A stretch of DNA of 45,866 nucleotides from Acidobacteriota bacterium (GTDB lineage Bacteria > Acidobacteriota > Terriglobia > 2-12-FULL-54-10). The stretch spans positions 1 to 45,866 of the forward strand of contig SHUM01000025.1 of NCBI GenBank assembly GCA_009691245.1, given 5' to 3'. Positions 1,460-39,053 of this stretch are shown here, piece after piece (within the stretch, counting starts at the first letter, position 1; each line of letters begins with the position of its first letter). A program made the translations under genes and the position numbers. The notes beneath the pieces were generated by a model that worked only from the letters and a program-made list of their open reading frames with translations, was not told the origin of the DNA and did not search any database.

Positions 1460-2735
1460 ATGAACACACTCTATTACGGCGACAATCTGGACATCCTCCG
1501 CCGCTACCTGCCCGACGAGTCGGTGGACCTGGTCTATCTCGACCCGCCGTTCAACTCCAATCAGGATTACAACGTGCTCTTCGCCGAGCGCGACGGCACC
1601 CGCTCCGCCGCGCAGTTCAAGGCCTTCGGCGACACCTGGCGCTGGGACGAATCCGCCTCACGTGCCTACACCGAAGTGGTCGAGCAGGGCGGCAAAGTCT
1701 CCGACGCGCTGCAAGCCTTCCGCAAATTTCTCGGCGATAACGACATTCTGGCCTATCTCTCGATGATGGCCCCGCGCCTAGTCGAGATGCGCCGCGTGCT
1801 CAAGCCCACCGGCAGCATCTACCTGCACTGCGACCCCACCGCCAGCCACTACTTGAAGCTGCTGATGGACGCGATATTCAACCCTCGAAATTACCGCGCG
1901 GAAATTACGTGGAAGCGAACGGGTACACACAGTGATGCAAAACGGTGGAGTCCGGTCGCCGATATCATCTTGCACTATGCCAAGGGAGACAATGCAACGA
2001 GGAACTCGCTGCATGAGCCGCATAGCGAGACTTATATCGCAGACAAGTACCGCTTCACCGATGAAGACGGCCGTCGGTACATGCTCGACAACATGACGAG
2101 CCCGAAGCCACGACCAAACATGGTGTATGTATGGAAAGGGAACTCCTCCCCAACTCTCGGTTGGAGATGCTCAAAAGAAACTATGGCGACACTCGACCGA
2201 GAAGGTCGCATTTGGTATCCCGATTCAAAAGAAAAAAGGCCGCGACGGAAGCGCTATTTGGACGAGATGGAAGGAGTTCTCACTGGCAATGTCTGGACGG
2301 ATATCGACCCCTTTAATTCGCGCGCGCAGGAACGAATGGGATATCCCACGCAAAAGCCCGAAGCGTTGCTACAGCGGATCATTAAGGCGAGCAGCAATGC
2401 GGGCGATGTGGTGCTTGATCCATTTCTCGGTGAAGGCGGGGCACACCGGAGCGGCGCATGTGCGCGACCTGCGCGGCGTGATCCAGCGCGAAAAAGCCGA
2501 GATGGGCGTGCTGATCTCGATGGAGCAGCCCACGCAGCCGATGCGCTCCGAAGCCGCCTCCGCTGGATTCTACGAAGCGCCGTGGGGCAACAAGTTTCCC
2601 AAGCTGCAACTGCTCACCGTGGAAGAATTGCTGACTGGCAAGACGGTCGAGTTCCCGCACGAAAACGTAACCTTCAAGAAAGCGCCGAAGTCGCGCCCCA
2701 CTAAACCCTCCAACGACGAATTTGACTTCAGGTAG
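1460..2735 (+). pseudogene. Broken DNA methyltransferase/restriction endonuclease fusion
   Basis: The N-terminal 324 codons encode a beta-class amino-methyltransferase: motif IV DPPF at residues 28-31, a variable middle (target recognition) region, and DPFLG at 320-324, the start of SAM-binding motif I (normally DPFxGxGT). At about 2426-2432 the frame changes abruptly. Frame 1 then runs as arginine-rich nonsense to 2704, while the +1 frame picks up VKAGHTGAAHVRDLRGVI and continues to 2735. That tail is the C-terminal end of the endonuclease-like domain that follows motif I in full-length relatives (the QVKxGH strand carries the PD-(D/E)XK lysine). The segment between DPFxG and QVKxGH, roughly a hundred residues or more in relatives, is missing. 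So this is an internal deletion joined out of frame, lacking the SAM-binding loop and most of the nuclease core. Neither activity should survive. Confidence 0.85.
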
Positions 2736-19692: not shown

Positions 19693-19860
19693 CCGTGCGC
19701 CTGCTGCGAGTTGACAAAGGTGATCACAATACCTGATCGCATCCAAGCGAAATATCCGCTGCCTGTTGTCGCACGGCGTAATGTTTCATTATCCCGAAGA
19801 AAAGTTTGAAAATTGGAGGTCACCAATTGTGACAGCCAATCCGACCGCGACAGTATCCCA

Positions 19861-20688
19861 ATGAAAATGGGCGCCAACAAAATCGCAGGAAAAGCAGAAT
19901 TGCTGGAGAAAAAACTCGGAGCTCTGCAATCCGCACTCGTGGCCTATTCCGGCGGGGTGGATTCGGCTTACCTGGCGTGGGCGGCGCGGCGGGCGCTGGG
20001 CGACAGGATGCTTGCGGTGCTGGCTGATTCGCCGAGCCTTGGCGAGTCGCAACGTGAGCACGCCATCGCGTTTGCCCGCGATTTCGATATTCCGCTGGAG
20101 ATTATCCGCACGGCGGAGTTTGATAATCCTACTTACATCGCCAACGCGCCGGACCGCTGCTTTTATTGCAAGGATGAGTTGTTTGGGAAATTGTCGGACC
20201 TGGCGCGCGCGCGCGGATACGCCGCGATTGCCTACGGCGTAAACGCGGACGATGTTCACGACTACCGCCCCGGGCATCGCGCCGCCGCTGAGCATGGCGT
20301 GTGTTCGCCTCTGCTCGATGCGGGATTGACCAAGGCGGAGATTCGTCAGCTTGCGAAAGAGGTCGGCCTTCCGGTGTGGGATCGTCCGGCGTCGCCGTGT
20401 CTTTCTTCGCGCATCCCTTACGGCACTCCGGTTACAATTCAAACCGTGAAGACCATCGACCACGGCGAAGACTCTCTCCGCGCGCTCGGCTTCCGCCAGT
20501 TCCGCGTGCGCCACCACGGCGAGCTGGTGCGCATCGAGATCGCCGCGGACGAACTGCCTCGCGCGCTCAATCCGCAGATGGCGCAGATTCTCGCAGAGAA
20601 GTTCAAGGCGCTAGGCTATAAGTACATAACGCTGGACATGGAAGGCTTCCGCTCCGGCTCCCTCAACGAAGTCCTGAAAGCGGATTAG
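19861..20688 (+). CDS. larE: LarE-type ATP-dependent sulfur transferase
   Basis: A 275-residue PP-loop enzyme. SGGVDS (residues 30-35) is the ATP-pyrophosphatase loop; later segments DRCFYCKDELF (Cys100, Cys103) and PASPCLSSRIPYG (Cys180) are typical of LarE. In the lactate-racemase pathway, LarE adenylates the nicotinate-derived precursor and adds sulfur to build the nickel-pincer cofactor. The CxxC pair plus the downstream Cys is the three-cysteine set known to hold a [4Fe-4S] cluster in some LarE proteins, as opposed to the single sacrificial Cys of the Lactobacillus enzyme. No larB, larC or larA is present in the window. I use the ATG at 19861; a TTG at 19813 is less likely. It converges with the Nramp gene three bases away. 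Confidence 0.9.
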   Translation: MKMGANKIAGKAELLEKKLGALQSALVAYSGGVDSAYLAWAARRALGDRMLAVLADSPSLGESQREHAIAFARDFDIPLEIIRTAEFDNPTYIANAPDRCFYCKDELFGKLSDLARARGYAAIAYGVNADDVHDYRPGHRAAAEHGVCSPLLDAGLTKAEIRQLAKEVGLPVWDRPASPCLSSRIPYGTPVTIQTVKTIDHGEDSLRALGFRQFRVRHHGELVRIEIAADELPRALNPQMAQILAEKFKALGYKYITLDMEGFRSGSLNEVLKAD

Positions 20689-30620: not shown

Positions 30621-30704
30621 TGTCATTCCGAGTGTAGCGAGGAATCTGCTTTTGGTTGCGCGCGAAGGCTGAAAAGCAGATTCCTCGCTACGCTCGAAAT
30701 GACA
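30621..30704. repeat. Palindromic intergenic repeat, copy 2
   Basis: TGTCATTCCGAGTGTAGCGA at the left, then GGAATCTGCTTT, and AAAGCAGATTCCTCGCTACG ending GAAATGACA: near-perfect arms of about 32 bases. It separates purM and purN on the same operon-like strand. It could form a hairpin in that transcript. Its translation gives the FERSEESAF and RFLATLGMT peptides. Confidence 0.85.
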
Positions 30705-30734
30705 ACGCAAGTGATCCGAGTCGCACCGCAACGG

Positions 30735-34665: not shown

Positions 34666-37005
34666 CTAGACGCGAACCTCTTCAATCGTAGCCGGGAAAA
34701 TGTCTTCGTAGGCCGACCGCAGCGATTCCAGAGAAACGCTGAATAGTTTATGGCCTTGTTGCGAGACGACCAGCGCCTCGCCGCCCGTAACGCCGATCTC
34801 ATCGGCGCGGATATTATATTGCGAAACGATGTGGTCGATCCGCGCGCGCGACTCCTTCGTCGCCGAAAGCAATATGCGCGAGGCGTCCTCGCCAAACAAT
34901 AATCGGCGGGCATCATCTGCTTGATTGAGCTTGACGCTCGCGCCGACGCCGCTCGACAACGCGCACTCGGCCAGCGCCACGGCCAGGCCGCCATCGCTCA
35001 GATCATGCGCGGATTCGACCAGGCCTTCCGCAATCAGATGGCGGCAGCAGGCCTGCACGCGCTGCTCATAAGCCATCTCCACATACGGCGGCAAGCCCCA
35101 CAACTCTCCTAAGATCGTTTGCGCATATTGCGACGAGCCGAAGCTCACCGCGAAACTCTCATCTGTGGTGGTTACGCCGCCCAGCACGATAATACTGCGA
35201 CCGGCGTGACTGCCCGTGGGGCGGAACCACGCCGTGGCATGAGCCTCAGCCTTCTCCAGCAAGCCGACCACGCCGATCACGGGAGTGGGATAGATAGCGC
35301 GGCCTTCCGTCTCGTTATAGAAACTGACGTTGCCTCCGGTGATGGGAATTGACAGCGCCTCACAGGCCTCGGTGATGCCGTCGATGACTTCGCTGAACTG
35401 CCACAGGATCGAGGGCTTCTCCGGATTGCCGAAGTTGAGGCAGTTGGTTCCGCCAATGGGCTCGGCCCCGGTGGCGCTGACGTTGCGCGACGCCTCGGCC
35501 ACGGCCAGCCGCGCGCCGCGCCTGGGATCGAGATAACAGTAGCGGCCATTGCCGTCAAGAGCCATGGCCAGCCCCTGGCCCGTCTCCTTGATGCGGATCA
35601 CTCCCGCATCTCCGCCGGGACCGGTAATGGTGTTGGTGCGCACCATGCTGTCGTACTGCTCGGTGATCCAGCGCTTCGAGGAGATATTCGGTGCGGCGAG
35701 CAGACGCACCAGGTCCAGGGCCAGATCCTCTCCGCTGCGCGCATGATCGAATTGCGCCTTTACCGCGGCGGGCGGATCGAGCGGCTCCAGGCGCGACCGC
35801 GGCGCCCAGGGCCGGTCGTACACGGGAGCTTCGTCGGTAAGCGCGGTGTTGGGAATTTCGGCCACCACCTTGCCGCCCTCTTTGACGCGCATCACCGGCT
35901 CGGGAATCACCGTGCCGATCTCCACGGCATCGAGTCCCCACTTCTTGAAGATGCCGATGACTTCCTGCTCATGCCCACGCTCGGCAACCAGGAGCATGCG
36001 TTCCTGCGATTCGCTGAGCATAATCTCGTAAGCGGTCATGCCGGTCTCGCGCTGCGGCACAAGGTCCATTTCAATCTCGACGCCCACGCCGCCGCGTCCG
36101 CCCATCTCGCACGTCGAGCAGGTCAGTCCCGCCGCGCCCATGTCCTGAATGCCCAGCACGCGCCCGGAGTGCATGGCTTCGAGGCAGGCTTCCAGCAGAA
36201 GCTTCTCCAGGAACGGATCGCCCACTTGCACGTTGGGGCGCTTCTGCTGGCCGTCCGCGCCGGAGAACTGCGCCGATGCCAGCAGCGAGGCACCGTGAAT
36301 GCCGTCGCGACCCGTCTTGGCGCCGACGTAGATTACGGGATTGCCCACGCCCTCCGCCTTGGCGAAGAAGAGTTCGTCCTTGCGGGCCAGACCCAGCGCG
36401 AAGGCGTTCACCAGCGGGTTGTCCTGATAGCAGGCTTCGAAGACCGTTTCGCCGCCCACGTTGGGCACGCCAAAGCAATTGCCATAATGTCCGACGCCGC
36501 CCACAACGCCGCGCAGGATGCGGCGGTTCTGGGTGATCTTCACGGGTACGCCACCTGGCAAGGAAAGCGTGCGGTCTTCGACGATGGGACCAAAACGCAG
36601 CGAGTCCATGATGGCCACGGGTCGCGCGCCCATGGTGAAGATGTCGCGTAGAATGCCCCCCACGCCAGTGGCCGCGCCCTGAAATGGCTCGACGAAGCTG
36701 GGGTGGTTGTGCGACTCCACCTTAAAGACGCAGGCCAAGCCGTGGCCGAGGTCCACCACGCCGGCGTTCTCCCCAGGGCCTTGCAGCACGCGAGCGCCGC
36801 GCGTGGGCAGCCGCTTCAGATGCATGCGCGAGCTCTTGTAGCTGCAATGCTCGCTCCACATCACGCTGAAGATGCCCAGCTCGGTGAGCGAAGGCTCACG
36901 GCCCAGCAAGGTCAGGACGCGGGAATACTCCTCCGGCGTGATCTGATGCTGCTCAATCAACTCTGGCGTGATGGTCGACAAGGGTTCTTCTGCCTTGGTA
37001 GCCAC
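34666..37005 (-). CDS. purL: Phosphoribosylformylglycinamidine synthase subunit PurL
   Basis: The ATP-using synthetase of the three-part FGAM synthase (PurS-PurQ-PurL). Motifs: [79 protein letters not shown] and [12 protein letters not shown]; two repeated AIRS-like halves follow. Family length is matched (about 770-780 residues). The start is not settled: GTG at 37003-37005 ([10 protein letters not shown]) lies in the arm of a 39-bp hairpin, and TTG at 36979-36981 (MSTITPEL) lies just after it; the frame stays open to 37107. The hairpin (36997-37084) therefore sits at or just before the start codon. It follows purQ on the same strand and precedes purF. Confidence 0.95.
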
Positions 37006-37084
37006 GGTGAGCGGTTTTCTCGCCGTGGGTTTTTGGTTCGCTTCGCAAAAGCCCACGGCGAGAAAACCGCTCACCGTGGCTACC
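36997..37084. repeat. 39-bp near-perfect inverted repeat at the purL start
   Basis: The left arm 36997-37035 (GGTAGCCACGGTGAGCGGTT...) pairs with 37046-37084 over 39 bases with one mismatch (a G-U pair in RNA), loop 37036-37045. In the purL mRNA this would be a very stable hairpin directly at the possible start codons. It looks like an inserted palindromic element: it also makes the extra N-terminal frame ...[11 protein letters not shown]...[13 protein letters not shown]. Confidence 0.8.
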
Positions 37085-37121
37085 CGTGCCTCGCACAAAA
37101 CTTCCAATCCGCCGCCGCGGC

Positions 37122-37859
37122 TTAGCGGTGCGGCGCAACCGCCTCTGTAGCCTTGGGCCGCGCATACGCTCCGCTAATTGCGTTGATGGCCGATTGAAAA
37201 ATGGTGCGCCCATCGGTGGAGCCGAGCAGCGCCTCGCAGGCACGCTCCGGATGCGGCATCATGCCCATCACATTGCCGCTGCGGTTGCAGATGCCGGCGA
37301 TGTGATGCAGCGAACCGTTGGGGTTGGCGCGATCCGACAAGCCGCCATCCGCCTCGCAATAGCGGAAGACAATCTCCCGGCGCCGCTGCAGGGTTTCCAG
37401 CGTTTCGTCATCGACGTAGTAGTTGCCCTCGCCGTGGTTGATGGGAATGGACAACACCTGGCCGGGGCGCAGAGCGTTGGTAAAGGGCGTGTCGACATTC
37501 TCGACGCGCAGATGCACGGGGCGGCAGATGAAACGCAAGTTGCGGTTGCGCAGCATCGCGCCCTTCAACATGCCGGATTCGAGCAGGATCTGAAAGCCAT
37601 TGCAGATGCCCAACACCAGCCCACCGCGCGCGGCAAACTTTTTCACCGACTCCATGATGGGCGCGAAGTGGGCGATGGCGCCCGTGCGCAGATAGTCGCC
37701 GTAGGAAAATCCGCCAGGAAGGATGATGGCGTCCGAGCGCTCGAGGTCAGTTGATTGGTGCCACAAGAATGCGGCTTGTTGCCCGAGGGCGTCCTGGACC
37801 GCATGAAAAGCGTCGTGGTCGCAGTTGCTGCCCGGAAATACCACTACCCCGAATTTCAT
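37122..37859 (-). CDS. purQ: Phosphoribosylformylglycinamidine synthase subunit PurQ
   Basis: The glutaminase subunit that supplies ammonia to PurL. The 245 residues begin [18 protein letters not shown] and carry the class I amidotransferase nucleophile Cys86 in [16 protein letters not shown], and the His/Glu pair in [14 protein letters not shown]. Full length. It is first in the minus-strand run purQ-purL-purF-Fic-purM-purN. TATAAT on the minus strand (37918-37923) lies about 60 bases before its ATG, with no good -35 box. A short terminal extension ([10 protein letters not shown]) is unlike most relatives but harmless. Confidence 0.97.
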
Positions 37860-37976: not shown

Positions 37977-38441
37977 CTAGTTGGCGGGTTTCAGTTCCAG
38001 CGTGACCTGGACTTCGTCACGGTCGTCGAAGGAGCTGACAGTTTTCTTGTCGCTGACGCCGCCCTGAAACTCGGCGTGAACTTCGTAGTCGGTGTCGCGA
38101 TCCAGGCCGCGAATCACGAAGCGGCCTTCCGCTCCCGCGATGCGCGTGCGAACCTCGGAGGTTTTCTTATTCTTCAGATGCACCACCGCCTGGGCGACGC
38201 CCAGCTTCTGGTCATTTGGCCCGGCTTGCACCACCTGGCCGGAGAGGTTCTTCATGACCTGCTGCTCGCGCTTGGACGGGCCGGGAAAGGTTACGTTGGG
38301 GGTTCCGCGGTTCTGCGCAACCAGCGCCATGGGTGCAGCGAGGAAGCCAGAAGAGGCCAGCAGCGCAATGGCGCACGCCCGCGCCACTCCAGAAAACACT
38401 CCGCGACTTCCTGAGAACTCGATTTTGCGAATACTATGCAT
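37977..38441 (-). CDS. Secreted carboxypeptidase-regulatory-like domain protein
   Basis: A 154-residue protein with a signal peptide: basic MHSIRKIEFSGSRG, then a hydrophobic stretch ACAIALLASSGFLAAPMAL and cleavage around VAQ/NR. A linker with PSKREQQVMKNLSGQVV leads to a beta-sandwich domain: GVAQAVVHLKNKKTSEVRTR, GAEGRFVIRGLDRDTDYEVHAEFQG, VSSFDDRDEVQVTLELKP. This is the pattern of carboxypeptidase-regulatory-like (transthyretin/CNA-B-like) domains common in secreted Acidobacteria proteins; G-x-F-x-I-R-G-L is typical. Its function is unknown; probably periplasmic or surface. It stands alone. Confidence 0.8.
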   Translation of the reverse strand: MHSIRKIEFSGSRGVFSGVARACAIALLASSGFLAAPMALVAQNRGTPNVTFPGPSKREQQVMKNLSGQVVQAGPNDQKLGVAQAVVHLKNKKTSEVRTRIAGAEGRFVIRGLDRDTDYEVHAEFQGGVSDKKTVSSFDDRDEVQVTLELKPAN

Positions 38442-38523: not shown

Positions 38524-38790
38524 CTACTCCTTATCGTCGTCTTTGTCGTCGCCGTAAGGGTCGTCCTCGTCGTCGTCCTCATCGTCATCCTCATCCTCGT
38601 CGTCGGGATCATCCTCTTCATCATCATCATCATCAATAGCATCCTCGTCCTTGGCCAGATTGAACTCCAGCGGATTGGTGCTGATGACCTCCAGCTCGGC
38701 GGCGCAGTCGGGACAACTCACCAGTTCGCCTTCCTCGATTTCATCAGGATCGATATCAATCATCGCTTCACATTCAGGACACTGCGCCAT
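38524..38790 (-). CDS. LysW-like zinc-ribbon protein with long acidic tail
   Basis: An 88-residue protein. Residues 1-46 match LysW/ArgW, the amino-group carrier proteins of lysine/arginine synthesis: MAQCPECEAMIDIDPDEIEEGELVSCPDCAAELEVISTNPLEF, with a C4 zinc ribbon (Cys4, 7, 26, 29) and the ELEV strand followed by NPLEFNLA. In carrier LysW the C-terminus is short and ends EDWGE, the last Glu being the attachment point for the substrate. Here residues 48-88 are almost only Asp and Glu, ending DDKE. The final Glu is kept, but EDWGE is not. GGAGGT lies five bases before the ATG (38788-38790). The GAC/GAT/GAG-rich DNA (38530-38640) is low complexity and could vary in length. argG is the only arginine gene in the window. 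Confidence 0.75.
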   Translation of the reverse strand: MAQCPECEAMIDIDPDEIEEGELVSCPDCAAELEVISTNPLEFNLAKDEDAIDDDDDEEDDPDDEDEDDDEDDDEDDPYGDDKDDDKE

Positions 38791-39053
38791 GCGACCTCCA
38801 ATCATTCCCCACACGGAAAATTTACTAGCCCCGGCATAGTTCGCTTCACACGCGACACCGCTTTCGCGGGACTCTCCGCGCACTTGCCCCAGAGTTCGCG
38901 AAGATGAGCGCCAAGGGAAATTATAGTATCGCTATCCGCGTTAGCAAGGTGAAAAGAATTGTGGAGTGCCCGCCAAGAGAACAGCATTATCGCGCGGTGT
39001 CAAGTGGGCCGCGGGGATGCGAGTATGATGAAAGAGCAGAGAAAGGCCAAACG

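What the first reader, a model, noticed from the sequence alone, without database searches (positions are those of the whole stretch)
38524..38790. LysW-like carrier fold fused to a low-complexity Asp/Glu tail
The first 46 residues are a clear LysW/ArgW zinc ribbon, but the C-terminus is about 40 almost purely acidic residues instead of the short EDWGE that carries substrates. The final residue is still Glu. Either this is a carrier with a new tail, or a LysW-derived protein repurposed as an acidic, perhaps metal- or DNA-mimicking factor. No lysX/argX ligase is nearby to say which. The GAC/GAG repeats could also change length between strains.
Basis: partly seen in the sequence, partly recalled or inferred. 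Interest (0 to 1): 0.65.

Follow-up and report, generated by a model that had tools for sequence, protein, structure and literature searches.

The report
Carrier-derived zinc protein with acidic tail
This small bacterial gene encodes a zinc-binding protein descended from an amino-acid-carrying protein; across much of the phylum Acidobacteriota it has lost the carrier's attachment tail and partner enzyme and gained a long, highly acidic tail, so it is probably a repurposed protein of still unknown role.

Summary
The gene lies on the minus strand (38790 to 38524): 88 residues, a LysW-type zinc ribbon (Pfam PF21344, E 9e-16) plus a 41-residue tail with 33 Asp/Glu. It is not an artefact: 141 distinct Acidobacteriota genes share this build, all four cysteines kept. 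The own genome (100% complete) has no RimK-type ligase, and none of 33 genomes of its class (own included) has LysX. Across 188 distinct LysW-domain genes, 46 of 47 with the EDWG[EQ] tail have LysX nearby; none of 141 acidic-tailed ones does. A syntenic pair of loci (L191/L183) shows the change: lysX-lysY-lysZ are gone, while LysW stays with an altered tail. The family therefore looks like a LysW-derived protein turned to another use. What it does now is not shown; I favour a zinc ribbon with a disordered polyanionic arm acting through protein contacts. One rival has concrete support: in Vicinamibacteria-type lineages the gene sits directly before larE (50 of 60 cases within about 60 bp), yet at least six genomes carry it without LarE. 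New variant of a known kind.

The parts
38524..38790 (-). the gene: 88-aa acidic-tailed LysW-like protein, stop codon included
   Evidence: the only PF21344 hit in the genome
38650..38790 (-). LysW-type zinc ribbon, residues 1-47 (Cys4, Cys7, Cys26, Cys29)
   Evidence: PF21344 E 9e-16; model pLDDT about 78-90, best PDB matches LysW at 43-48% identity, rmsd 0.8-1.5
38527..38649 (-). acidic tail, residues 48-88, 33 of 41 Asp/Glu, predicted without structure
   Evidence: pLDDT about 56-60, no secondary structure
38795..38799 (-). ribosome-binding site GGAGG ahead of the ATG
   Evidence: read directly from the sequence
37977..38441 (-). conserved neighbour downstream on the same strand, 82 bp away: small secreted-looking CarboxypepD_reg protein, 154 aa
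   Evidence: PF13620; a homologue lies beside the acidic gene in 45 of 141 distinct family loci
19813..20688 (+). larE (CxxC-C type sulfur transferase), 18 kb away and on the other strand; context only, because it adjoins the acidic gene in other lineages
   Evidence: TIGR00268 E 2.4e-93; motif and adjacency elsewhere

Best explanation
The gene belongs to a family, found here only in Acidobacteriota, that arose from the amino-group carrier LysW/ArgW. The zinc ribbon was kept. The EDWGE attachment tail and the dependence on LysX/ArgX were lost, and the C-terminus grew by in-frame indels into a disordered Asp/Glu arm, often with an aromatic residue near its end. Shown here: the family, the loss of tail motif and ligase, and the retained fold. 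Inferred: LysW's ability to dock on protein surfaces was the starting point, and today the ribbon docks on a protein partner while the polyanionic arm competes with nucleic acid or shields a basic surface, as the acidic tail of Hfq does. My probabilities: LysW-derived and not an amino-group carrier, 0.93; this polyanion mechanism given that, about 0.45. The target is not identified.
For: Tail type against LysX over 188 distinct genes: EDWG[EQ] 46 of 47 with LysX nearby, acidic 0 of 141; the exception, L027, has its LysX about 4 kb away, outside the fetched piece. No LysX above cut-off in any of 33 genomes of the class (own included), although 31 of them carry the gene. No RimK ATP-grasp in the own genome. 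On a domain-only tree the tail type changes twice, against 42 for shuffled labels. L191 and L183 share flanks (DAHPS 85%, PheA 65%, M20 92% identity) and a LysW domain 87% identical; L191 has lysX-lysY-lysZ and EDWGE, L183 has none of the three and ends GDEDDEEWEG, and no LysX scores above cut-off in L183's genome. Several genomes carry both kinds of gene (G131, G063, G062, G253, G041, G107, G167, G213), so the two are not interchangeable. All four Cys in 141 of 141; an aromatic in 111 of 141 tails. Tail median 27 aa, 75% Asp/Glu. Domain modelled as LysW, tail unstructured. Precedent: acidic C-termini autoregulate Hfq (PMC5606850, title and abstract only) and the C-terminal D/E-rich domain of MBD3 is a putative Z-DNA mimic (PMC6294567, title and abstract only).
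Against: No interaction partner, expression or binding datum is available; the polyanion role rests on composition alone. Neighbours differ by lineage, so they do not point to one process. Tail length varies from 5 to 53 residues, and the shortest tails (for example APQDEDDWEE) hardly make a polyanionic arm. The domain tree has 44 columns and weak support.
Confidence: 0.45

Rival explanations
1. LarE partner. The protein assists the [4Fe-4S]-type sulfur transferase LarE (nickel-pincer nucleotide pathway), as docking factor, metal or sulfide handler, or as a target of LarE chemistry; in Terriglobia the two genes have separated.
For: larE lies on the same strand beside the acidic gene in 60 of 141 distinct family loci and beside none of 47 carrier-type genes; estimated start within about 60 bp of the stop in 50 of 60, with the CxxC-C motif in 59 of 60. 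LarC, the nickel-insertion enzyme, is present in 16 of 17 genomes checked, including the own genome. CxxC-C LarE is [4Fe-4S]-dependent (PMC9283937).
Against: Near-complete genomes G073, G121, G141, G189, G227 and G283 carry the gene without LarE above cut-off. G014 has the gene beside larE but no LarC. In this window larE is 18 kb away on the other strand. In several Terriglobia larE sits beside larC instead (coordinates).
Confidence: 0.2
2. Envelope-linked role: the protein works with the secreted CarboxypepD_reg proteins encoded just downstream, or regulates them.
For: CarboxypepD_reg neighbours in 45 of 141 acidic loci, with a rhomboid protease and an M28 peptidase often divergent in Terriglobia.
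Against: The neighbour is already present at the carrier-type locus L191 with lysX, so the linkage may simply be inherited. Other lineages lack it. The LysW-like protein has no signal peptide that I can see, so the two would be in different compartments.
Confidence: 0.12
3. Amino-group carrier with a new tail, charged by a ligase that is not of the LysX/ArgX type.
For: Zinc-ribbon fold kept; this copy ends in Glu.
Against: No RimK/LysX in the genome. LysX/ArgX recognises EDWGE through its GSWGR motif, and changing the final Glu of ArgW causes arginine auxotrophy (PMC10433800); here EDWGE is absent and the final residue is not conserved. ArgJ present.
Confidence: 0.04
4. Metal store or buffer: the Asp/Glu arm binds divalent metals with low affinity.
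For: Composition only.
Against: No metal-transport or metal-resistance genes were recognised as recurrent neighbours.
Confidence: 0.1

Closest known systems
LysW / ArgW amino-group carrier proteins (TIGR01206, NF041070; PDB 3wwl, 5k2m)
   Same: zinc-ribbon fold, four cysteines, acidic make-up, small size; 43-48% identity to solved LysW over the domain
   Different: no EDWGE end, no LysX/ArgX partner, below both curated LysW cut-offs, 41-residue acidic tail
LarE-linked form of the same family in Vicinamibacteria-type lineages
   Same: same domain and acidic tail
   Different: there directly upstream of larE; here next to a CarboxypepD_reg gene, with larE 18 kb away
Acidic disordered C-terminal tails such as that of Hfq (PMC5606850)
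   Same: folded module with a disordered acidic C-terminus
   Different: no sequence relation; Hfq is an RNA chaperone; nucleic-acid competition is untested here
YacG and Elf1-type zinc proteins with acidic ends (from memory, a lead only)
   Same: small zinc module with acidic C-terminal region
   Different: YacG matches the domain only at E 0.018, below its Pfam cut-off; no relation to Elf1 was seen

Membership tests
LysW/ArgW amino-group carrier | LysW zinc-ribbon fold with four Cys | tested here: met
   PF21344 E 9e-16; Cys in 141 of 141 relatives; Foldseek top hits LysW
LysW/ArgW amino-group carrier | C-terminal EDWGE motif | tested here: not met
   tail ends DDPYGDDKDDDKE
LysW/ArgW amino-group carrier | conserved C-terminal Glu as attachment site | tested here: not met
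   Glu in this copy, but only 72 of 141 in the family
LysW/ArgW amino-group carrier | LysX/ArgX ligase in the genome | tested here: not met
   PF08443 absent; best TIGR02144 match E 3.9e-9, cut-off not reached
LysW/ArgW amino-group carrier | curated LysW family score | tested here: not met
   TIGR01206 40.1 of 53.2 bits; NF041070 41.7 of 75 bits
LysW/ArgW amino-group carrier | covalent substrate on the C-terminus | not testable with these tools
   needs mass spectrometry
LarE / nickel-pincer nucleotide system | LarE and LarC encoded in the genome | tested here: met
LarE / nickel-pincer nucleotide system | gene adjacent to larE in this genome | tested here: not met
   larE at 19813-20688 (+), 18 kb away
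LarE / nickel-pincer nucleotide system | gene never present without LarE | tested here: not met
   G073, G121, G141, G189, G227, G283
Nucleic-acid-mimicking acidic proteins | long disordered Asp/Glu stretch | tested here: met
   33 of 41 residues, low model confidence without structure
Nucleic-acid-mimicking acidic proteins | competition with nucleic acid for a partner | not testable with these tools
   needs biochemistry

The most novel reading that the evidence does not exclude
A LysW-derived protein has become a dedicated partner of [4Fe-4S]-type LarE, for example presenting sulfide, metal or itself as a protein substrate to a PP-loop sulfur transferase, so that a former amino-acid carrier now serves cofactor sulfuration.
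Probability: 0.12. Interest if true: 0.75.

Novelty: new variant of a known kind. Interest (0 to 1): 0.5.

Why it matters
The family is common in Acidobacteriota, including nearly all sampled relatives in the window's class. By domain match alone it would be read as LysW and taken as a sign of carrier-based lysine or arginine synthesis; tail motif plus LysX separates the two kinds cleanly. The L191/L183 pair gives a near before-and-after view of a metabolic carrier protein turned to another use, and the larE operons give a concrete partner to test.

Tried and rejected
Artefact or assembly error: rejected, because 141 relatives and a close homologue keep frame and acidity. Carrier with a distant ligase: rejected by whole-genome search. 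LarE as obligatory partner: rejected by six genomes without LarE. Phage or virus origin: two weak IMG/VR hits of 40% over 30 residues and no match in phage records, not followed. Paper searches for LysW with an acidic tail, for LysW in Acidobacteria and for YacG gave nothing relevant.

Full report
What is there. The gene runs on the minus strand from ATG at 38790 to the stop at 38524-38526, with GGAGG just upstream. The 88-aa product has a LysW-type zinc ribbon (PF21344, E 9e-16; below the curated LysW cut-offs of NCBIfam) and a 41-residue tail with 33 Asp/Glu. AlphaFold gives a confident ribbon and an unstructured tail; Foldseek's five best PDB matches are LysW structures, and a profile search of PDB sequences gives the same answer.

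It is a family. PF21344 occurs in 147 of 297 sampled Acidobacteriota genomes and once in the own genome. From about 200 fetched loci I compared 188 distinct genes. Forty-seven end in EDWG[EQ]; 46 have LysX nearby, and the other (L027) has it about 4 kb off, beyond the fetched piece. The remaining 141 carry an acidic tail (median 27 aa, 75% Asp/Glu) and none has LysX nearby. All 141 keep both CxxC pairs. The C-terminal residue is Glu in only 72. In the named scan the non-Acidobacteriota hits (Chloroflexota, Thermoplasmata) that I read were carrier-type with LysX, apart from two records whose titles look mis-binned (L169, L170). LysX reaches its cut-off in 34 of 297 genomes and in none of the window's class.

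How it arose. The domain-only tree needs two changes of tail type, against 42 for shuffled labels, but has only 44 columns and weak support. The second change comes from L191, a carrier-type gene that sits beside the acidic L183. These two loci share DAHP synthase (85%), PheA (65%), M20 peptidase (92%) and a LysW domain at 87% identity; L191 has lysX, an argC-like lysY and a lysZ-like kinase (Pfam), and L183 has none of them. No LysX scores above cut-off in L183's genome. I read this as loss of the three enzymes with retention and remodelling of LysW; gain in the other direction is less likely but not excluded. Several genomes hold both kinds of gene.

Tail change between relatives. The window gene and L192 (88 versus 95 aa; the locus about 91% identical in DNA) differ in the tail by in-frame indels; over the first 47 codons there are 9 synonymous and 3 non-synonymous differences.

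Context. In Terriglobia one or two CarboxypepD_reg proteins usually follow; the window has one, 82 bp downstream. In Vicinamibacteria-type lineages larE follows directly: 60 acidic loci, 50 with an estimated gap within about 60 bp, 59 with the CxxC-C motif of [4Fe-4S] LarE. This is the strongest functional lead, but at least six near-complete genomes have the acidic gene without LarE, and in several Terriglobia larE pairs with larC instead (coordinates).

Mechanism. Carrier function is very unlikely: no ligase, no EDWGE, which LysX/ArgX recognises, no conserved end residue, and ArgJ is present. What remains is inference: a zinc ribbon that docks on a protein, with a polyanionic arm that competes with nucleic acid or shields basic surfaces. 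A LarE-linked role is the main rival.

Limits. Neighbours were counted within about 4 kb of fetched pieces; genomes from the genome search are unnamed; gaps to larE are estimated from alignment starts; no expression or binding data exist here.

Noticed in passing
window 19813-20688: larE of the CxxC-C ([4Fe-4S]) type; larC is on another contig of the same genome (C5:19744-20958), so the nickel-pincer nucleotide pathway is probably present.
   Followed up: partly
window 36987-37123, between purQ and purL: The window holds 137 bp where relative L192 has about 40 bp; translations of both strands here contain near-identical peptides ([21 protein letters not shown]), which suggests an inserted inverted-repeat element.
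   Followed up: no
window 1460-2735: A DNA methyltransferase-like ORF appears to change frame near its 3' end (the frames at 1460-2704 and 2127-2735 overlap); possibly a pseudogene or a sequencing error.
   Followed up: no
window 30650-30731: Similar peptides (FERSEESA type) appear in the ORF translations of both strands here, which looks like another short inverted repeat.
   Followed up: no
L056 and L061: The acidic LysW-like gene lies beside a small thioredoxin-fold-like protein, cytidylate kinase and accA in one family.
   Followed up: partly
L191 6001-11311: A CarboxypepD_reg gene sits inside a lysW-lysX-lysY-lysZ cluster, between lysY and lysZ.
   Followed up: yes
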